Source: Prosthecobacter fusiformis
GTDB taxonomy: Bacteria > Verrucomicrobiota > Verrucomicrobiia > Verrucomicrobiales > Verrucomicrobiaceae
Assembly (NCBI RefSeq): GCF_004364345.1
Contig: NZ_SOCA01000001.1
Location: forward strand, 806,001-870,000
Reading direction: 5' to 3'
Length of the DNA: 64,000 nucleotides
Each line of letters starts with the position of its first letter. The first letter of the stretch is position 1. The notes below the pieces were generated by a model that saw nothing but the letters and a program-made list of their open reading frames with translations, did no database searches and had not been told where the DNA came from. The position numbers were made by a program, and so were the translations under genes. This document shows, piece by piece, positions 1-8,639 of this stretch.

Positions 1-1763
1 TCTCGAGCCGACGCCTCAGCACATCTCAATATCTCCTCTCCTTCCAGGGGCCTACCTAACAATTTCAAAATTTGGGCTTTCTTTACCCAGGCATCCACCA
101 AGCCTAATTTGTCATGAGATTGCTCAAAGTTTAGCCAGCTATCAACCACAATAAGCGCCTCTTGATACGCATCGGCCATGGTAAGAATCTGGGTCGTGGC
201 GTTGTAATATTCTGGACGATCTGAAAACCTTTTTACTCCAGCCATCAATAGATCGACAGAGTCTTGACGTAATCCTTGAAGTCTCAACTCCTCTGCCAGA
301 TTCGTCCAATATGAGGCCCAACCCGTGACTGATGCCGTAATGTTAACCAGCGCCTTCCAATCCAATCCGCGTTGGTGCCTGTTAGGTGCGAGAGCCTGAA
401 TCCATAACGCGCGCGCCGCTCCCAATACTCCGGCAAGTCCAGGCCAATCGGATTTTTGAACTGAGAAAAGATGTTGTCGTTCCTTCCGAAAAGTTTCCAG
501 CAGCGCGCTTCGCTCGGATTTCGTCATTCTTGGTAAGCTCAATAGTACACCCCTGAGAATGGTTCCTTCCGAGTTGAAAGCCGGTGTATTCGCCAAATAA
601 TTCAGAGCGTGACGCAACCATCCAGGGTAGGGTTTGTCTGGCTCAGTTTGAGAAGTGAGCGAGGACAAAATGGCTTTAGCAACCTTCGGCTCCAGCCCTG
701 CATCCCAGGATAGAGCTTTGGTAAGTGGATGCTCCAACGGAAGCCCGTCCTCCTTCTGTTTACCTGCCTCATCCTGACCGGATAGCTTGAAGCGGAGCGG
801 CTCGATTTTGCCCCCCAAACGGTCTGCAAGATGGCGGTATTTTTTTGCAGGCTCCGAGTCCTCATGCCTGAGGAGTATGGGATCCTCAAGGAGCGCAAGC
901 TGTGCATTATACGGAATCTGTATCGGCGTTGGAACCAGGCCAATCTCGCCGAACATTTCTCGCTCCTCAACATCCACATGCCTGCCCAAGGTATCGGCAA
1001 TGGCCCGTGAACGCTTCTCCGTCAATTCAAGTTCTCCCAGAGGCACAGGGCTGACAACAATGGTGATACGCCTCAACCAATCCGCAGTTTCCACTGAACG
1101 CTGAATCTCCAGCAGAGTGGATTCCAATCCCCAGAGATTTTGTTGATTGAGTCCTGTAACCAGGACAATGCGGTCAGAGGACTGGGTGAGAAGCAAATCT
1201 GCAATCCCGGTAATCCCAGTGCGGGCGTCAATAAAAATGGCATCTGGCCGTTCTGCTTCAGGCAAGGTGACAAACTGGGAACGAATCTGCTCGATCACCG
1301 GGTTTTTTCCCCCGTCCTTATGGGTGCGGCGAATCACCTCTGTAAGAGGAGCATCCATCGCATGTACGCGATCAGAATAATGGGTTGTCCCCGAGCAGTC
1401 GTCCTTGAGCAGAGCCGCAGGAACGAGCTTCAAAAAACCTGCCCCCTCCTTAAGCTTGGAGGCAATCACAGGAGAATAAGCGCACGCGGCCAAATTGATG
1501 GGTGGCGGAGGCGGCTCTCCCCGACGAACGGCTTCGTCCAGCAAGACGAGCCATTCGAAGAAATCCAGAACCCCAGGACGAGCAGGGTTAGTCTCATCCT
1601 CTTCTGCCTTCATGCATTCCATGAGGCTGAGGCCTGGGGCGTGAAGATCAAAGTCAATGAGCAGCACATTTTTTCCCCGCTGGGCAAACTCACAGGCGGT
1701 ATTGAGAAGCGCCTGGGTACGGCCCACCCCGCCCTTGAAGCTGAAAAATGTGATGATCTCCAT
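1..1763 (-). CDS. KGGVGR-motif P-loop ATPase, C-terminally truncated by the window edge
   Basis: The frame is open from the ATG at 1763 to base 1 (at least 587 codons, no stop), so the C-terminus lies outside the window. Residues 3-17 carry a deviant Walker A, FFSFKGGVGRT, in which the usual P-loop lysine before T is arginine while the upstream signature lysine K10 is kept. LLIDFDLHAPGL (about residues 40-51) is the switch I/Walker A' strand of MinD/ParA-type ATPases, and AIFIDARTGIT is a Walker B-like strand. After about residue 300 the protein is helical with no recognised domain, possibly TPR-like. It is the last of three tightly spaced genes (19 bases after the previous stop). KGGVGR ATPases occur in accessory and conflict-type clusters; the function here is unknown. 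Confidence 0.85.
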   Translation of the reverse strand, partial: MEIITFFSFKGGVGRTQALLNTACEFAQRGKNVLLIDFDLHAPGLSLMECMKAEEDETNPARPGVLDFFEWLVLLDEAVRRGEPPPPPINLAACAYSPVIASKLKEGAGFLKLVPAALLKDDCSGTTHYSDRVHAMDAPLTEVIRRTHKDGGKNPVIEQIRSQFVTLPEAERPDAIFIDARTGITGIADLLLTQSSDRIVLVTGLNQQNLWGLESTLLEIQRSVETADWLRRITIVVSPVPLGELELTEKRSRAIADTLGRHVDVEEREMFGEIGLVPTPIQIPYNAQLALLEDPILLRHEDSEPAKKYRHLADRLGGKIEPLRFKLSGQDEAGKQKEDGLPLEHPLTKALSWDAGLEPKVAKAILSSLTSQTEPDKPYPGWLRHALNYLANTPAFNSEGTILRGVLLSLPRMTKSERSALLETFRKERQHLFSVQKSDWPGLAGVLGAARALWIQALAPNRHQRGLDWKALVNITASVTGWASYWTNLAEELRLQGLRQDSVDLLMAGVKRFSDRPEYYNATTQILTMADAYQEALIVVDSWLNFEQSHDKLGLVDAWVKKAQILKLLGRPLEGEEILRCAEASAR

Positions 1764-1782
1764 GGGGCAGAATTTATTCCTA

Positions 1783-2760
1783 CTACGCTGCTGCCTTTAG
1801 GCAGTCGAGCAAGTCGGTCGTAACGGATCCGGTTGGGGATTTGTACTTTAAAGGGATCTCTTCATGGGCTTTTTTTGCGGTTTGTGGGAGCCTCTCAGGA
1901 GATTTACAACCAAGAATTGCTTTTCGCTTGGCTTCATTCCTGAACAAGGCGCTCATGCATTCGACAAAATGGTCCCAGGGCAGGCCGCGCTCTTCATGTC
2001 GGCGGTCCTGGAGATACCCTCCAAAATCGTCATGCAGCTTGGTCAACTGTTCCTGACCTGTTGCGCTGACCTCCAGAGATGCTCCAACCACATAGAACCA
2101 GCGCTTGATCTCCTGAACAGAAGCATTGCGATTCACAGCAACCCGCCAAAAGTCCGTAAGCCGGTCTACGGTGACAAAGGAGGGATGACGAATTGCTGCG
2201 TCCTCCAAAAAGAGACGTGCCCCCTGATCTAGGGGCCATGCTTTGTCGCGCAGGGCGTTGAGCCACATGGTTTCCAACCAAGCCGGCTGAAGAGCATGCC
2301 ACCCGAGGTAGAGGCGGAAGGATTCAGTCCAAAAGTCATCTGGCTTAACTTTGGAACCAGCCACAAGGACCAAAAACTCCTGCCTCTCTGCCACAAGTCC
2401 GGAAAGCTTGCGCACGCAACGACCCTTGAAAGACTCTTCCGGCATGCCCTCTGGCAACATTCGGAGAAGACGCACCATGGCAAAGGCGAATGGCCAGTCG
2501 CAAACCGTCGCTTCGTTCTGGATCCTGGCCTGCTCCAAGTCGTCAATAAGCTTCTCCGCACAGTTCTCAAACGCCTCTCGGCCTCGGGGGGCTACTTCCT
2601 TCCATGCCAGAGCAGCGGTCGCCACTGGATCATGCTCATCAGGGTCAAGGGTTGCAGGATTCCGGTCAACCATCACGGCCCGGATTTTCGTCGCGAAACC
2701 GGGATCGTTTTTTTTTGCGAGGACGTTCAATTCGTCCAATAGGATGGTTCGGAGACTCAT
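1783..2760 (-). CDS. Hypothetical helical protein of the KGGVGR ATPase operon
   Basis: A 325-residue soluble protein with no signal peptide or membrane segment. I do not recognise a family. It is rich in helix-forming residues, with a charged N-terminus and conserved-looking Trp/Leu blocks such as FWTESFRLYLGWHALQPAW and RWFYVVGASLEV. Its ATG overlaps the stop of the upstream gene by four bases (2757-2760), and the KGGVGR ATPase starts 19 bases after its own stop, so the three are very probably co-translated. It may be an adaptor or regulator of the ATPase, but this rests on position only. Confidence 0.75.
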   Translation of the reverse strand: MSLRTILLDELNVLAKKNDPGFATKIRAVMVDRNPATLDPDEHDPVATAALAWKEVAPRGREAFENCAEKLIDDLEQARIQNEATVCDWPFAFAMVRLLRMLPEGMPEESFKGRCVRKLSGLVAERQEFLVLVAGSKVKPDDFWTESFRLYLGWHALQPAWLETMWLNALRDKAWPLDQGARLFLEDAAIRHPSFVTVDRLTDFWRVAVNRNASVQEIKRWFYVVGASLEVSATGQEQLTKLHDDFGGYLQDRRHEERGLPWDHFVECMSALFRNEAKRKAILGCKSPERLPQTAKKAHEEIPLKYKSPTGSVTTDLLDCLKAAA

Positions 2761-3809
2761 GGGGGCGAGAGACTATTCCATGCGGTTTCACATTCTGCAT
2801 CAAATAACCCAAGAAGATGGACGGTGCGAACACCGCCTTCGAGAGCCGGAACTGCAATGTGGGGATGGACAAATTCCCGTAAACCGTCCTTTGCCGAATG
2901 CCGGCGCAGGATCTTTAAAAGCGGCCAAGTCAGGCCATGAGGGTCAGGGGCCTTTCCCGGCAGAAAACAATAGCCCTTGAAGTTCAAAGCATCCATGGCG
3001 GTCGGTTTCCACGCCCCTCCTTGAATGACCCCGTCCACGAGCAGCGCAGCGTCAAACTCGATTGCAACCAAGCCCATGGCCTCCCTGCGGCGACCGCGTG
3101 TTTCGTAACCCGGCAGGGCCAACTCGCGCAACACTGTCCATGCGGCGTCTTGCGTTCCCTGTTTCATTCCTTTCGCAGCCAGCAGATCCAAGGGAGATTG
3201 ATCCGAGAGCCAGAATGATGAACCGTTGGCGCACAGGCTGACCAAACCGCCGTCAGGCTGCACTGGCAAACTGGCTGGCGCGGCGGCGGTGAACCAATCA
3301 TAGACTGCCTTTTTCCAAACCCCACCGGCCCCCAAAAAATTGAAGCGAAGAGCATTCAGTGGAGCAACGTTCCACACGCGCCCGGTGAGGCTCTCAAACG
3401 CCGAAGCTTTGCGAAAAAAGAAGTCGCAGCCTGCACCTGCGATCATGGGATTGAGTGCTTTACCGGCCTCCATGAGCAAATCAGCGAACGAAAGTCCTGC
3501 CGCTCGCGATGACGGACGCGCATCTAAACGTCTTGTGGCTTCTGCCAAGGCGGGAAGAGGGAGATTTTCTCCGCGTCCGGGAGGTGCACCGTTTGGATAA
3601 GTCCACGATGCTGAACGGAGAGTTGGCGCATCAAGCTCCAAATTTTCCACCAAACGCTTTCTCCGACGGGTGGCCAAAATGGGCATTTTGTGCCCTGAGT
3701 AGGGCCCAGGAGCATTGGCAAGTTGGTCAAGGAACTGTTGCATTAAGGAAAAGAAGGAGAATCTCAAGCGAAGATCCCTCAGATAGTCAAGAAGAAACGG
3801 TCTAAACAC
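2757..3809 (-). CDS. Hypothetical protein, first gene of the KGGVGR ATPase operon
   Basis: A 350-residue protein that I cannot place in a family. The longest frame starts at a GTG (3809); an ATG at 3743 would give a protein starting MQQFLDQLANAPGP and is a reasonable alternative. The N-terminal stretch is hydrophobic and aromatic but not a clean signal peptide. The middle has glycine-rich and aromatic stretches (GAGCDFFFRKASAFESL, GAGGVWKKAVYDWF). It overlaps the next gene by ATGA. No gene lies upstream for about 1 kb, so it heads the operon. Confidence 0.7.
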   Translation of the reverse strand: MFRPFLLDYLRDLRLRFSFFSLMQQFLDQLANAPGPYSGHKMPILATRRRKRLVENLELDAPTLRSASWTYPNGAPPGRGENLPLPALAEATRRLDARPSSRAAGLSFADLLMEAGKALNPMIAGAGCDFFFRKASAFESLTGRVWNVAPLNALRFNFLGAGGVWKKAVYDWFTAAAPASLPVQPDGGLVSLCANGSSFWLSDQSPLDLLAAKGMKQGTQDAAWTVLRELALPGYETRGRRREAMGLVAIEFDAALLVDGVIQGGAWKPTAMDALNFKGYCFLPGKAPDPHGLTWPLLKILRRHSAKDGLREFVHPHIAVPALEGGVRTVHLLGLFDAECETAWNSLSPP

Positions 3810-4453
3810 GTATAGGTCAAACAGTGAAGCGGTGGCAACATTACTATTGACTGCTGCGACTCTATGAGAGAATGCGGTCCTGGGGGGGACCGCGCTTGAA
3901 TGGCGCGGCTAGAGGCGGAACCCCGTTGGAGTTCGACGGGAAGGGTATCTTGGGAGCATACGCCCAGGGTCCTGCCCGTTTCCAGGGGTGAGCTCGTGAG
4001 ACTCGCCCTAACCCTTCGCTATGGTCTGGAAGCCCGTTGTGCTTTGAGCATGGGTGAGGGCTTTGTATGAAGAGGCTGGAGGGGAAGACCTGGGTCCATG
4101 AAGTGATGGGGGAAATGGTATCTGTTATTTAGGCATGATGTTTTCCAGAATGCCGCATGAATGCGGGACTAGACAACGGTTGCGGCCAGGAGTGTCCGCG
4201 CTCATCTCGAAGGGGCTCTATTGTAACCTCTGGTCATTTCTTCAGTTCCAGCTTTCATCCCGCCTCGCATCACTCGGAGAGTGATGAATACTTTCCAGGC
4301 AGGCTGCTGCATCACTCGGATCGTCGTAGTCGCGGGACAGGAGGGGTGAATACGGTCTGCCGCAGAGGTGCGGTGGGGGACGGCATTTTACCGCTGGCAT
4401 GAGGGCGAGACGCATAAAATGGCCTGCAGGACGCGGACGCTCTAAGGAGGGCA

Positions 4454-4515
4454 GATGCCGCAGCATGTGAGGCCATCCTGGCCTCAGTTATGCGGGCGGG
4501 ACGCCCGCACTCCTT
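4454..4515. repeat. REP-like double-hairpin repeat, copy 1
   Basis: Identical over 62 bases to 4624-4685. It contains two perfect hairpins: GAGGCCA-TCC-TGGCCTC and GCGGGCG-GGA-CGCCCGC, each with a 7-base stem and 3-base loop, separated by AGTTAT. The compact double palindrome in an intergenic site is typical of REP/BIME-type elements mobilised by RAYT transposases; no RAYT gene is in the window. Confidence 0.8.
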
Positions 4516-4623
4516 GGGGGGCTGGAAGGTCTGCGGGATTTAGGGTGATGGGGGATGTCTGGGGACGGTTTTCCGCGAGACGCTGGACCGCCTGCGGGAT
4601 GCGGGTGCTCCATGGGGGGGACG

Positions 4624-4685
4624 GATGCCGCAGCATGTGAGGCCATCCTGGCCTCAGTTATGCGGGCGGGACGCCCGCACTCCTT
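4624..4685. repeat. REP-like double-hairpin repeat, copy 2
   Basis: Second exact copy of the 62-base element at 4454-4515, in the same orientation and offset by 170 bases. Both copies end in CACTCCTTG before diverging. The identity over the loops as well as the stems argues for recent duplication or transposition rather than convergence. Confidence 0.8.
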
Positions 4686-4706
4686 GAGGGGAAGGTCGGG
4701 AATGGG

Positions 4707-4749
4707 TGGGCTTCGAGCTTGCTTTCCGCTCAGGGACTGAGCGGGCTAC
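4707..4749 (+). repeat. Dispersed palindromic repeat, family B, copy 1
   Basis: The core CCGCTCAGGGACTGAGCGG is a hairpin (CCGCTCA / TGAGCGG), flanked by GGGCTTCGAGCTTGC on one side and GCTAC on the other. A closely similar element lies in opposite orientation at 53631-53674. The matching flanks mean that this is a repeat family and not just a chance stem. Confidence 0.65.
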
Positions 4750-4756
4750 GGGGCAC

Positions 4757-4793
4757 AAAAAAACCCCGGGCTGCTGTTGGGCAGACCGGGGTT
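4757..4793 (-). terminator. Intrinsic terminator of the Gfo/Idh/MocA gene
   Basis: Read on the minus strand, the stem AACCCCGG / CCGGGGTT (4793-4786 with 4769-4762) is followed by a run of seven T (4763-4757). It lies about 85 bases downstream of the oxidoreductase stop codon and would end that operon. Confidence 0.8.
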
Positions 4794-4877
4794 GATGGGG
4801 TTCTGGGCAGAAGTTTAAACCGGGGGGAGGCGGAGACGGCACTCGAGGGGGGCGTGCGCTGCGCCTTTCGGCTTCGC

Positions 4878-6275
4878 TTAGATGATCTCGACGCCTTCGA
4901 CTTTGATGCCGGGGATGGCGACGGGGTAGCCGCCGTCGGCGGTGGGTTTGGCGGGGGGCTCGGTCTCGGCGGTGACGATGGCGGGCATGTGCTGGACTTT
5001 GGAGCCGATGCATTCATCCCAGGTGATTTCCTTGCCGGAATAGGTGGCCATGCGGCCCATGACGGCGGTCATCGTGGATTCGGCACCGTAGTAGGCGTTG
5101 TTGATCGGCGTATTGTCGCGAACGGCGGCCTGGAGGATGTCGTGCTCGGTCTGGTAAGGATCGGGATCGCTGGCACGGCGGGATTTCTTCGGCTTAGCTG
5201 CTTCGGCGACGGGGTCTTCACCGCCGATGGGGCGGTATTTCCAGATGACGTTGCCCTTGTGGTCAACGGCGTAGCAGTTGGGCTTATTGTCCAGATAGAG
5301 CTTGCCCTTGGTGCCGGTGAATTCTTCGCGGACGGCATTGTAAACGCCGGACTGGTGGCGGCACTGGCTGTTGATGCGGACGCCGTTTTCATAGGTGAAC
5401 TCGACGTAATGATGGTCAAAGATCTGGCCGAACTTTTTGTCCACGCGCTGCTCGCGGCCGCCCATGCCCTGGGCGCTGACGGGATGCCCGCCGATGAACC
5501 AGTTGGCCACGTCGATGTTGTGGATGTGCTGTTCATTGATGTGGTCACCGCAGAGCCAGGTGAAGAAGTACCAGTTGTTGATCTGGTACATGAGCTCGGA
5601 CTGGTTAGGCTGCTTGTCACGGAACCAGATGCCGCCGCCATTCCAGTACACCTGGCCGGAGACGATATCGCCAATGATGTTCTGCTCCTTCACCTGCTTG
5701 AGGGCTTCTTTGTAGCAGTTTTGGTAACGGCGCTGGAGGCCGACGACGACTTTCAGATTTTTCTCATCGGCGATCTTGGCCATCTCCAGCACTTTGCGCA
5801 CGCCGGGGGCATCGACGGCGACGGGTTTTTCCATGAAGATGTGCTTGCCTGCATTCACGGCGGCTTCGAAGTGATAAGGACGGAAGCCTGGAGGTGTGGT
5901 GAGGATCACGAGGTCGCAGGTATCGATGACCTGCTTGTAGGCATCCAGGCCGGTGAAGATGCGAGAATCATCCACTTCCACTTTTTCTGCATGCTTGGTG
6001 CGCAGGTTGGAAAGGGCGCTGTCAGCCTTTTCTTTGAAGGCATCCGCCACGGCGTGGAGGATGACGCCTTCCTGCTTGGTGCTGAGCGCCTGGTTGGCGG
6101 CGCCTGAGCCACGGCCACCGGTGCCGATGAGGCCGACTTTAATGCGGTCGCTGCCGGCCACATTGGCGGACTGGGCGATGGTGAGGCCGGTGCTGGCCAC
6201 GGTGGCGACCGTGGCCGTGGCGGCGGTTTTGCCGATAAAGTCGCGGCGTGTGGTGGGGATTGTCTCGGTATTCAT
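4878..6275 (-). CDS. Gfo/Idh/MocA family oxidoreductase, Tat-exported
   Basis: An NAD(P)-dependent sugar or inositol dehydrogenase-like protein of about 465 residues. The start is set at MNTETIPTTRRDFIG (6275), because the twin-arginine motif TRRDFIG then falls at the expected place before a hydrophobic alanine/threonine-rich stretch ending near AQS. The Rossmann nucleotide-binding loop is VGLIGTGGRGSG, and the catalytic-region lysine motif is EKPVAV. The frame extends upstream by ten codons, but that would bury the Tat signal. It follows a sugar isomerase gene by 39 bases on the same strand, the common pairing for periplasmic polyol or keto-sugar breakdown in this phylum. The substrate is not deducible. 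Confidence 0.93.
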   Translation of the reverse strand: MNTETIPTTRRDFIGKTAATATVATVASTGLTIAQSANVAGSDRIKVGLIGTGGRGSGAANQALSTKQEGVILHAVADAFKEKADSALSNLRTKHAEKVEVDDSRIFTGLDAYKQVIDTCDLVILTTPPGFRPYHFEAAVNAGKHIFMEKPVAVDAPGVRKVLEMAKIADEKNLKVVVGLQRRYQNCYKEALKQVKEQNIIGDIVSGQVYWNGGGIWFRDKQPNQSELMYQINNWYFFTWLCGDHINEQHIHNIDVANWFIGGHPVSAQGMGGREQRVDKKFGQIFDHHYVEFTYENGVRINSQCRHQSGVYNAVREEFTGTKGKLYLDNKPNCYAVDHKGNVIWKYRPIGGEDPVAEAAKPKKSRRASDPDPYQTEHDILQAAVRDNTPINNAYYGAESTMTAVMGRMATYSGKEITWDECIGSKVQHMPAIVTAETEPPAKPTADGGYPVAIPGIKVEGVEII

Positions 6276-6314
6276 GATATCTGGGTTGGTTTGAACAATT
6301 AACAAAAAGTGTGA

Positions 6315-7169
6315 TTACGCATTCCAGGCTTTTTTGATCACCTCGATGCCTTCCAGGTACACCTGCTCTGGCGATGGGAAGAAATCACGCCAGACGCGGG
6401 TGGCGGCGGCGAGGTCCGGCAGGGAGCCGCCGAAGGCTTCGATGGTCATCCAGCCATCGTAGCCAAGGGACTTCAGCTTTTGGATCTGCTCGGTGATGTT
6501 GATGTGGCCACGGCCAGGGGTGCCGCGGTCGTTTTCAGAAATGTGCACATGGTTCAGCTTGCCGGAATTAAACACGGTCTCGATGGCAGTGAACGGACAT
6601 TTTTCTTCGATGTTGGCGTGGAACGTGTCGTACATGGTGCCGAAATTGGCGTGGTCCACCCGCTTGGCGTAGCTGGCCGCCTGCTCCATGGTATTTAGGA
6701 GGTGGGATTCAAAGCGGTTCAGGGCCTCAATGGCGCACTTCACCCCGGCGGCTTCGGCCACGGGGGAAATCGCGCGATGTACTTCTGCGGCGTGGTTCAG
6801 CTCTTCCTCGGTAGGATACTTGCCGGTGAACTGGCCCAGCACCTGGTAATAAGGGCCGCAAAGGGTCTGCACGCCTGCATTGTGGGCGCATTCGAAGACG
6901 CGCTTCAGGTGATCGATGGCTCCCTGGCGGTTCGCCGCCACTGGGCTGATGGCATTGTGAGCTTCGTCTGGCAGCACCGTCACGGCGGTGGCTTCTAGGC
7001 CGTTATCCTTTAACACGCGGCCGATGGTGGAAAAGTGGCCGGGATTGCTGACATCGAAGATGGGGATCTCCACGCCGTCGTAGCCGGCGGCCTTGAGTTT
7101 CTCAATGACGGGGAAGTTTTCATCGGTCACGTGACCGGTCCAGAGGAGGAGATTGAAGCCAATTTTCAT
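6315..7169 (-). CDS. Sugar phosphate isomerase/epimerase (TIM barrel)
   Basis: A 284-residue xylose isomerase-like TIM-barrel protein similar to D-tagatose/D-psicose 3-epimerases and hydroxypyruvate isomerase. Metal-binding and catalytic residues can be read in order: Glu in CAIEALNRFESH, Asp/His in MYDTFHANIEE, His in LNHVHISENDRG, and Glu in MTIEAFGG. There is no signal peptide, so it acts in the cytoplasm. It is the first gene of a two-gene operon with the Gfo/Idh/MocA oxidoreductase. Likely role: epimerising a keto-sugar made or used by its partner; the exact sugar is unknown. Confidence 0.9.
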   Translation of the reverse strand: MKIGFNLLLWTGHVTDENFPVIEKLKAAGYDGVEIPIFDVSNPGHFSTIGRVLKDNGLEATAVTVLPDEAHNAISPVAANRQGAIDHLKRVFECAHNAGVQTLCGPYYQVLGQFTGKYPTEEELNHAAEVHRAISPVAEAAGVKCAIEALNRFESHLLNTMEQAASYAKRVDHANFGTMYDTFHANIEEKCPFTAIETVFNSGKLNHVHISENDRGTPGRGHINITEQIQKLKSLGYDGWMTIEAFGGSLPDLAAATRVWRDFFPSPEQVYLEGIEVIKKAWNA

Positions 7170-7272
7170 GTAGGGGAGGGCAGACTAGAAAAGCGCCAGG
7201 AAAACCGCAAGACTTGCTTTCCGGCGATTTTGCAGCGAGCCCATGAAAACGCAGCCAGCACGGCCAAGGTTT

Positions 7273-7285
7273 CATGTTGAACATG
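7273..7285. promoter_or_regulatory. 13-base palindrome between divergent genes
   Basis: CATGTTGAACATG is a perfect 6+1+6 palindrome in the divergent spacer between the isomerase (start 7169) and the LysM lipoprotein gene (start 7341). It could be an operator; there is no other evidence and it may be chance. Confidence 0.25.
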
Positions 7286-7340
7286 CCAAACTGAAAACCA
7301 TACTCAGAACTGTCCTCTCTATAACTTCCTTTCCCCAACG

Positions 7341-7841
7341 ATGATCTCCGCTGCCCGCCTCCTCCTCACCGCCCTGACCTGTACCCTGCTGGCTTCCTGT
7401 GAAAATGGTCAAAATCCATTTGGCCAGACGGGCGGCAGCGATCCCTATGTCTCCAATTACGGCAATGACGGCGGCTACAACCCCTACCCTGGCCAGACTG
7501 GTTATGCCCAAGGCGGAAGCAGCAGCTACTCCAGTGCGCCGACCTATACCCCGCCGCCAGCACCGGTGGAGGCGGATCCATACGCTTTCAATGCCCCTAG
7601 CAGCACGCCGAAGACCAGCTCCAGCTCGTATAGCGCTCCGAAAAAAACGGTTTCATCCTCCAAACCTAAAACGTCCAGCAAAAGCACCGCGAAGAAATCT
7701 GGCGGAAGTTATAAGGTGGTCAAAGGCGACACCCTGTATGGCATTGCCCGCAAACGCAGCACCACCGTCGCCAAGATCAAATCTGCCAATGGCCTCAGCA
7801 CGGACATCATTCGCCCAGGGCAGACCCTGCGAATCCCGTAA
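7341..7841 (+). CDS. LysM-domain lipoprotein
   Basis: A 166-residue secreted lipoprotein. The N-terminus ends in a lipobox, LLASC, with the acylated cysteine at about residue 20. A long low-complexity linker rich in Ser, Pro, Tyr and Lys follows. The C-terminus is one LysM domain (SYKVVKGDTLYGIARKRST through IIRPGQTLRIP) that should bind peptidoglycan glycan strands. It probably links the outer membrane to the cell wall. The start codon follows a pyrimidine-rich leader without a Shine-Dalgarno. Confidence 0.9.
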   Translation: MISAARLLLTALTCTLLASCENGQNPFGQTGGSDPYVSNYGNDGGYNPYPGQTGYAQGGSSSYSSAPTYTPPPAPVEADPYAFNAPSSTPKTSSSSYSAPKKTVSSSKPKTSSKSTAKKSGGSYKVVKGDTLYGIARKRSTTVAKIKSANGLSTDIIRPGQTLRIP

Positions 7842-7943
7842 ATGGATCTGGCAAGGGCCGGTTCCATAATAAGAGCCAACGTGGAATGGCGGCAGGGGTC
7901 GAATGAATCTCTTCTATCTACCGTCCATTCAGCTCACACGATT

Positions 7944-8639
7944 ATGGAAACACCTCCCCACATCCCCGCTAGCCCGCCTTCCCTTCCTCCTGCCCAAGCT
8001 CCTCTTCGTCAGGGGCCGTCAGGAAAGAAGATCATCCTCACCATCTTGGGCGTTTTTGTCCTCGGGTGTGGCATCGCCGCCGCCACCACTGCGTGGTGGG
8101 TGAAGCGTAACATTTACGCCAGCCCCATCCAGCCCGTCAGCCTCAGCCAGAGTGAGCATCAGGCACTGGAGGCCAAAATCCACGTGCTGGAAACCAGCGC
8201 TGCGCCTTCCGGCCTGCCGGATGTCTCCCCAGGGGAGCAAGAGCGAACCCTGGTCATCACGGCGAAGGAGATCAATGCCTATCTGGCCAGCCAGGAGCTG
8301 GGGGAAACCATCCAGGTGGACCTCGGGCATGACAGCATCTCCGCCACGGTGCTCGCTCCTGTCCCGGCAGACGCGGGTCTTCCTCTTATTTCTGGAACGA
8401 CCCTCCGGCTCAGCCTTTCCCTCACCGCACGGATGGATGAAGCCAAAAAAGTCGCTTTGATTGTCCGTGATGTACGAATGGGCGGTCTTCCTATGCCTAA
8501 CGCGTGGCTGGGAGACATCAAAGGCGTGAACTTGGCCGATGAAAATCTCTCCAACGACCCGGCCCTCCAGCGTTTCTTCGCAGGGATTGAGAGTCTGCAG
8601 ATCACACCCGACGGGCTGCGCGTGGTCCTCGCTGAGTAG
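7944..8639 (+). CDS. Membrane-anchored hypothetical protein
   Basis: The frame is open from 7842, directly after the LysM gene stop, but METPPHIPASPP at 7944 is preferred because the upstream codons look like intergenic DNA. The resulting 231-residue protein has a short proline-rich cytoplasmic tail, one transmembrane helix (IILTILGVFVLGCGIAAATT), a short coiled region and an extracytoplasmic domain with alternating beta-like segments. The pattern TAKEINAYLASQ followed by beta strands resembles small lipid-binding-like periplasmic domains, but I cannot name a family. Confidence 0.75.
   Translation: METPPHIPASPPSLPPAQAPLRQGPSGKKIILTILGVFVLGCGIAAATTAWWVKRNIYASPIQPVSLSQSEHQALEAKIHVLETSAAPSGLPDVSPGEQERTLVITAKEINAYLASQELGETIQVDLGHDSISATVLAPVPADAGLPLISGTTLRLSLSLTARMDEAKKVALIVRDVRMGGLPMPNAWLGDIKGVNLADENLSNDPALQRFFAGIESLQITPDGLRVVLAE

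What the first reader, a model, noticed from the sequence alone, without database searches (positions are those of the whole stretch)
1..3809. Possible undescribed three-gene system with a KGGVGR ATPase
Two proteins I cannot assign to any family (350 and 325 residues) are coupled by an ATGA overlap and followed 19 bases later by a large P-loop ATPase. The operon is flanked by 1 kb of repeat-rich DNA, the usual setting of an accessory island. KGGVGR ATPases are known in conflict-type and peptide-modification clusters, but I do not recall this gene set. It could be a defence or signalling module; that is inference from architecture only.
Basis: partly seen in the sequence, partly recalled or inferred. 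Interest (0 to 1): 0.6.

Follow-up and report, generated by a model that had tools for sequence, protein, structure and literature searches.

The report
Three-gene cassette with KGGVGR ATPase
A bacterium carries an accessory three-gene set whose switch-like ATPase belongs to a family that elsewhere sits beside toxin-like proteins, so the set is probably a defence or self-restraint module with an undescribed partner protein.

Summary
Three closely packed minus-strand genes: A (350 aa), B (325 aa) and C, a KGGVGR ATPase that leaves the window and is 1005 aa long, ending in TPR repeats. A and B hit nothing in Pfam, NCBIfam, PADLOC or PHROGs.

The operon is accessory: in one same-genus genome its flanking genes lie 466 bp apart; in the relative with the best flank matches the site holds about 6.7 kb of other genes.

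The layout recurs. In front of 34 KGG-x-GR ATPases I found TIR (6), a possible ADP-ribosyltransferase pair (5), an A/B pair called type II here (5), MqsA-like (4), HEPN-like/PDC-M28 (7), unassigned (6), and the window. Window A shares a C-terminal motif with type II A proteins (0 of 50,000 shuffles), but its N-terminus does not match, its full-length profile score is not significant, and B's homology is unproven. The window's ATPase is sister to one whose A and B are unlike its own, which suggests cassette exchange.

Best reading: a TA/abortive-infection-like module in which C is the TPR switch, A the likely effector and B an adaptor. New variant of a known kind; no function was tested.

The parts
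2757..3809 (-). Gene A, 350 aa, candidate effector; C-terminal blocks shared with type II A proteins
   Evidence: no family hit; block test
1783..2760 (-). Gene B, 325 aa, predicted all-helical; candidate adaptor or antitoxin
   Evidence: no family hit; single-sequence model, mean pLDDT 57
1..1763 (-). Gene C, KGGVGR ATPase with TPRs, cut by the window edge (full ORF 1005 aa, L002:12746-15763)
2757..2760 (-). ATGA overlap of A stop and B start
4446..4521 (.). Copy 1 of a 76-nt dispersed repeat in the right flank
4616..4691 (.). Copy 2 of the same repeat, 95% identical

Best explanation
An accessory biological-conflict operon of toxin-antitoxin or abortive-infection kind. C, a ParA/MinD-like ATPase with arginine in place of the P-loop lysine and a TPR array, is the nucleotide-dependent switch and sensor scaffold that keeps its partners inactive. 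A is the likely effector, B a helical adaptor or antitoxin between A and C. On a trigger, probably infection or another insult sensed through the TPRs or B, C changes state and A acts on the cell. A+B is an exchangeable cassette: other lineages of the ATPase carry TIR, HEPN-like, MqsA-like or another A/B pair in the same place. Shown: gene order, ATPase family, TPRs, recurrence of the layout, variable site, clustering of partner type on the ATPase tree. Inferred: every functional step, and that A rather than B or C is the effector.
For: Variable site. Among 34 ATPase loci the upstream genes vary by type; all 6 TIR-type genes score above Pfam's TIR_2 cut-off and one MqsA-type gene above that of MqsA_antitoxin. 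ATPase tree: TIR one clade (98/90), HEPN-like one clade (96/89), nine label changes against a shuffled mean of 22.4. The window ATPase is sister to L053's (100/99) although A and B of the two loci are not similar. Five other loci have the order A, B, KGGVGR ATPase of type II (L037, L054, L112, L116, L127). C-terminal blocks built without window A give it 43.6; 0 of 50,000 shuffles reach this, and the best unrelated ORF of 918 scores 28.8. Of 7 plasmid relatives read (of 17 found), one lies beside BREX-2 pglX, one near hsdR and a recombinase gene, four near integrases. Precedent: HEPN + ParA/Soj-like ATPase dyads proposed as TA systems (PMC3710099, passages); inactive MinD/ParA-like domains in VMAP ternary systems (PMC7159879, passages).
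Against: No defence model matches 10 neighbours of this copy. No fold or catalytic motif recognised in A (model mean pLDDT 33; type II A profile against the PDB, nothing below E 0.55). Full-length type II A profiles give window A E 0.57-1.7, and in three of four models unrelated ORFs rank above it; hhalign probability is only 4.3% (E 0.0096). Its N-terminus does not match (16,020 of 20,000 shuffles reach the score). B's relation to type II B is inconclusive. The A blocks were placed after I had seen the likeness. No function was tested.
Confidence: 0.5

Rival explanations
1. A regulatory or signalling module (development, surface or peptide processing) in which C scaffolds A and B through its TPRs, without toxicity.
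For: KGGVGR-type and MinD/ParA-like domains are also reported with peptide-processing clusters (PMC7159879, passages); no defence model among 10 neighbours.
Against: The operon is at a variable site, and related ATPases carry TIR, MqsA-like and HEPN-like genes. No radical SAM gene was recognised by eye nearby.
Confidence: 0.22
2. A ParA/MinD-like positioning or partition accessory, with A and B as cargo or adaptor.
For: C is of the ParA/MinD fold (AAA_31, CbiA and ParA models above cut-off; ParA-like PHROG).
Against: The P-loop lysine is arginine in all 31 family members listed; TPRs are unlike partition ATPases (recalled); the partners vary between TIR, MqsA-like and others.
Confidence: 0.1
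3. A fast-evolving or decaying accessory operon with little current function.
For: B has no detectable relative and A only a short motif.
Against: All three frames are intact and coupled; the layout is kept in five type II and five type I loci.
Confidence: 0.1

Closest known systems
HEPN (MAE_18760 family) + ParA/Soj-like ATPase dyads (Anantharaman et al. 2013, PMC3710099)
   Same: A small partner gene beside a SIMIBI ParA/Soj-like ATPase; the ATPase is proposed there as the antitoxin (passages read)
   Different: The window has two partner genes without HEPN similarity, and C carries TPRs
PDC-M28 (PADLOC candidate system)
   Same: The PDC-M28B model matches C over residues 3-243 (E 2e-26, 91.1 bits)
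   Different: Only model positions 130-342 of 438 match, against 1-435 and 488 bits for L041; the small HEPN-like gene and second P-loop-like gene seen at L041 are absent
VMAP/vWA-MoxR ternary conflict systems (Kaur et al. 2020, PMC7159879)
   Same: Multi-gene conflict systems that use inactive MinD/ParA-like domains and TPRs (passages read)
   Different: No MoxR, vWA or VMAP gene recognised in the ORF lists around the operon, by eye only
Type II A-B-ATPase operons seen here (L037, L054, L112, L116, L127)
   Same: Gene order; A with the shared C-terminal motif; B in the same place; KGGVGR ATPase (TPRs shown by call for L112, and L037; not tested for the others)
   Different: Window A is longer with an unrelated N-terminus; B homology unproven; the window ATPase pairs with L053 (type I), not with type II ATPases

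Membership tests
NF047398 KGGVGR-motif variant AAA ATPase | Score above the curated cut-off (90 bits) and the KGG-x-GR motif | tested here: met
   113.6 bits; KGGVGRT, VLLIDFDLHAPG and DAIFIDARTG stretches
PDC-M28 | Full-length match to the ATPase model | tested here: not met
   positions 130-342 of 438 only; L041 matches 1-435
PDC-M28 | Small HEPN-like gene and second P-loop-like gene alongside (layout of L041, not PADLOC's own rule, which I did not see) | tested here: not met
   ORF maps; A and B have no PADLOC hit
HEPN + ParA/Soj ATPase TA dyad | HEPN-domain partner | tested here: not met
   no Pfam hit at E<=1 for A or B
VMAP ternary system | MoxR, vWA and VMAP genes | tested here: inconclusive
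   none recognised by eye in the ORF lists; neighbours were not scanned with Pfam
FxSxx/RiPP peptide-modification cluster | radical SAM enzyme and precursor peptide | tested here: inconclusive
   no radical SAM ORF recognised by eye; short peptides not searched
Type II A-B-ATPase operon (defined here) | A with the C-terminal PT..[DE]A ... G[LM]T..L blocks, two genes upstream of a KGGVGR ATPase | tested here: met
   0 of 50,000 shuffles, best unrelated of 918 ORFs 28.8 against 43.6; with three-protein blocks 1 of 10,000 shuffles and 34.3 against 45.7
Type II A-B-ATPase operon (defined here) | Full-length profile match of A | tested here: inconclusive
   hmmsearch E 0.57-1.7; hhalign E 0.0096, probability 4.3%
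Type II A-B-ATPase operon (defined here) | Homologous N-terminus of A | tested here: not met
   16,020 of 20,000 shuffles reach the score
Type II A-B-ATPase operon (defined here) | Homologous B | tested here: inconclusive
   64 and 17 of 10,000 shuffles in two block tests, four unrelated ORFs ranking above in the first; hhalign E 0.13-0.48
Anti-phage defence system | Protection against phage | not testable with these tools
   needs an experiment

The most novel reading that the evidence does not exclude
A defines an undescribed effector family, and A+B is an exchangeable cassette on a KGG-x-GR ATPase platform whose other cassettes are TIR, HEPN-like, MqsA-like and possibly ADP-ribosyltransferase proteins: one switch, many weapons, with cassette exchange visible between the window and L053.
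Probability: 0.4. Interest if true: 0.65.

Novelty: new variant of a known kind. Interest (0 to 1): 0.5.

Why it matters
If the reading holds, KGG-x-GR ATPases are a shared control platform for many toxic effectors, as STAND NTPases are (recalled), and the unknown genes in front of them become a catalogue from which new effector families can be predicted. Window A and the type I A proteins would be the first candidates to test. It also poses a clear biochemical question: how a ParA-like switch works with arginine in place of the P-loop lysine.

Tried and rejected
Direct homologue searches for A and B found no relative: genome-contig scans, plasmids at E<=1, 96 relatives for B, 387 phylum genomes for A. 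B was not searched beyond the 96 relatives in the genome search. The one other A match (L005, E 2.3e-4, residues 103-220) lies inside a 506-aa ORF that looks like glycogen synthase by eye: taken as chance. A search of 387 genomes with L037's A gave itself and four weak matches (E 0.0013-0.007), not followed up.

Type I A/B as homologues of window A/B: rejected (window A against three type I A proteins z 0.6, 2.1 and 0.8; window B against three type I B proteins z -0.2, 0.1 and 0.0; hhalign E 0.087 for A and 0.51 for B).

Homology of B with type II B proteins: not established; even L037's B is not significant against the other three (795 of 10,000 shuffles). N-terminus of A: no similarity. Full-length type II A profiles: window A at E 0.84 behind two unrelated ORFs, not among the 14 listed, at 1.7 behind two, and first non-member at 0.57 (four models). 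Smith-Waterman of window A against L037's A: z 3.4, 2 of 400 shuffles.

Structure: A modelled alone, mean pLDDT 33, not used. B alone, pLDDT 57, helical; Foldseek against the PDB had no match at E<=0.001, so no fold is assigned. PDB profile searches with type I A, type II A and type II B gave nothing below E 0.35. The ADP-ribosyltransferase reading of type I A rests on invariant H44, Y86 and E204 and recall only.

Composition: the operon (GC 0.51-0.57 in 1-kb windows) is not clearly different from its surroundings. Rfam: no match in window 1-8000. 'KGGVGR' occurs in one held paper, on mushroom lectins (listing only).
Full report
What is there. The window is G000:C1:806001-870000 of a 5.83-Mb genome. 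Its left end carries three genes on the minus strand: A (2757-3809, 350 aa), B (1783-2760, 325 aa, ATGA overlap with A) and C, which starts 19 bases after B. C is cut by the window; with the sequence to the left it is 1005 aa (L002:12746-15763). C scores 113.6 bits on NF047398 (cut-off 90) and ends in TPRs: its best PDB matches are TPR proteins (names and repeats recalled) over residues in about 585-880, and the DNA holds a 120-nt tandem array of 6.7 copies. A and B have no match in Pfam, NCBIfam or PADLOC at E<=1 or PHROGs at E<=0.1.

Variable site. The flanking sulfatase-like and Gfo/Idh-like genes (named by eye) were sought as DNA in 46 genomes of the genus, the own one included. In G018 the two matches lie at C18:110808-112902 and C18:108050-110341, 466 bp apart, with no operon. 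In G042, which has the best matches to both flanks after the own genome (80% and 88%), the space is about 6.7 kb, holds other ORFs and has no blastn match to the window's operon. B has no match in the other 95 of 96 relatives. The repeat on the right belongs to a family with 19 matches in this genome and is no island mark.

Recurrence. NF047398 above its cut-off is rare: 8 of 387 phylum genomes, the own one included. C residues 1-367 match 19 of 278 order genomes at E<=1e-8, the own one included. I read the genes in front of 34 KGG-x-GR ATPases (loci; ORFs or annotation). Dropped before the count: G501 (L104/L128, a copy with a stop, on a short piece) and L115 (contig end). The 34 are: window 1; TIR 6 (all six above Pfam's TIR_2 cut-off); type I pair 5 (L053, L055, L057, L113, L114); type II pair 5 (L037, L054, L112, L116, L127); MqsA-like 4 (L039 by Pfam; L065 and L068 by annotation; L038 by resemblance to L039); PDC-M28/HEPN-like 7 (only L041 was tested with PADLOC, 488 bits; L041 gives a HEPN_AbiV match below the cut-off, E 0.0046, L119 and L121 give none; L040, L042, L066 and L071 are labelled by layout); unassigned 6 (L056, L058, L067, L069, L070, L117). 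Matches below the cut-off were not examined. All 31 ATPases listed have arginine where ParA/MinD proteins have the P-loop lysine (the comparison is recalled); most were fetched for matching a KGGVGR query.

A resembles type II A proteins at its C-terminus. The A proteins of L054, L112 and L116 are 47-50% identical, L127's aligns with them, and L037's A joins (hmmsearch E 0.00094 among 918 ORFs; hhalign E 6.5e-5, probability 64%). Window A shows the same C-terminal pattern. A three-block score built from the other five gives window A 43.6; 0 of 50,000 shuffles reach it and the best unrelated ORF scores 28.8. With four-protein blocks 0 of 20,000 shuffles; with three-protein blocks 1 of 10,000, best unrelated 34.3 against 45.7. 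I chose the block region after seeing the likeness, so these numbers are optimistic. Against it: full-length profile E 0.57-1.7, with unrelated ORFs ranking above in three of four models; no likeness at the N-terminus. A profile search with window A among five rows found, besides the own genome, one new locus in 295 class genomes (G790, E 1.2e-42); it lies in front of a B-like gene and a KGGVGR ATPase (L127), but it is much closer to the other rows than to window A.

Tree. A 33-row ATPase tree groups by partner: TIR one clade (98/90), HEPN-like one clade (96/89), type I and type II two changes each, nine label changes in all against a shuffled mean of 22.4. The window ATPase is sister to L053's (100/99); L053's A and B are type I and not similar to the window's. 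Both lie in a weakly supported group (84/89) with the other type I and three type II ATPases. This fits exchange of the A+B cassette while the ATPase stays, but it is one case, and L037 has a long branch whose place is unsure.

Mechanism. ParA/Soj-like ATPases paired with HEPN toxins were proposed as TA systems (PMC3710099, passages); inactive MinD/ParA-like domains occur in VMAP ternary systems and beside peptide-processing systems (PMC7159879, passages). By position, and by analogy with the TIR and HEPN-like operons, I take C as switch with TPR sensor, A as effector and B as adaptor or antitoxin. None of this is shown here. None of 10 neighbouring proteins of this copy matches a PADLOC model at E<=1e-5. 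Of seven plasmid relatives read, out of 17 found, one lies beside BREX-2 pglX, one near hsdR and a recombinase gene, four near integrases, one near neither.

Novelty. The kind (small partner plus ParA-like ATPase in a conflict setting) is known. This A/B pair and the cassette view across partner types I did not see in the listings of the literature searches or in the passages read of PMC7159879, PMC8195603, PMC3710099 and PMC12839542; these cover openly licensed PubMed Central papers only.

Noticed in passing
L053:6736-8318, L055:9173-10716, L057:5675-7170, L113:5722-7233, L114:470-1981: A second three-gene type (type I) in front of KGG-x-GR ATPases; its five A proteins share invariant H44, Y86 and E204 and may be ADP-ribosyltransferases, unproven.
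   Followed up: partly
L092:6340-13024: In G042 the same genomic site holds about 6.7 kb of other genes, among them ketosynthase-, acyl-carrier- and epimerase-like ORFs (by eye): the site takes different cargo.
   Followed up: partly
window:4446-4521 and 4616-4691: GC-rich intergenic repeat, dispersed with 19 matches in the genome.
   Followed up: partly
L059, L118, L120, L122, L123, L124: Two-gene TIR + KGG-x-GR ATPase layout recurs in this phylum and forms one ATPase clade.
   Followed up: yes
L071 (NZ_CP035707.1 13993-22697): A KGGVGR ATPase and its neighbours lie between BREX-2 pglX and a DUF6079 gene on a Sphaerotilus plasmid.
   Followed up: no
L002:991-4451: Ku- and LigD-like genes (by eye) lie about 8 to 12 kb left of the operon; probably unrelated.
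   Followed up: no
L002:13107-13910: The TPR-coding part of C is a 120-nt tandem array of 6.7 copies at 71% match, which could allow changes in repeat number.
   Followed up: no
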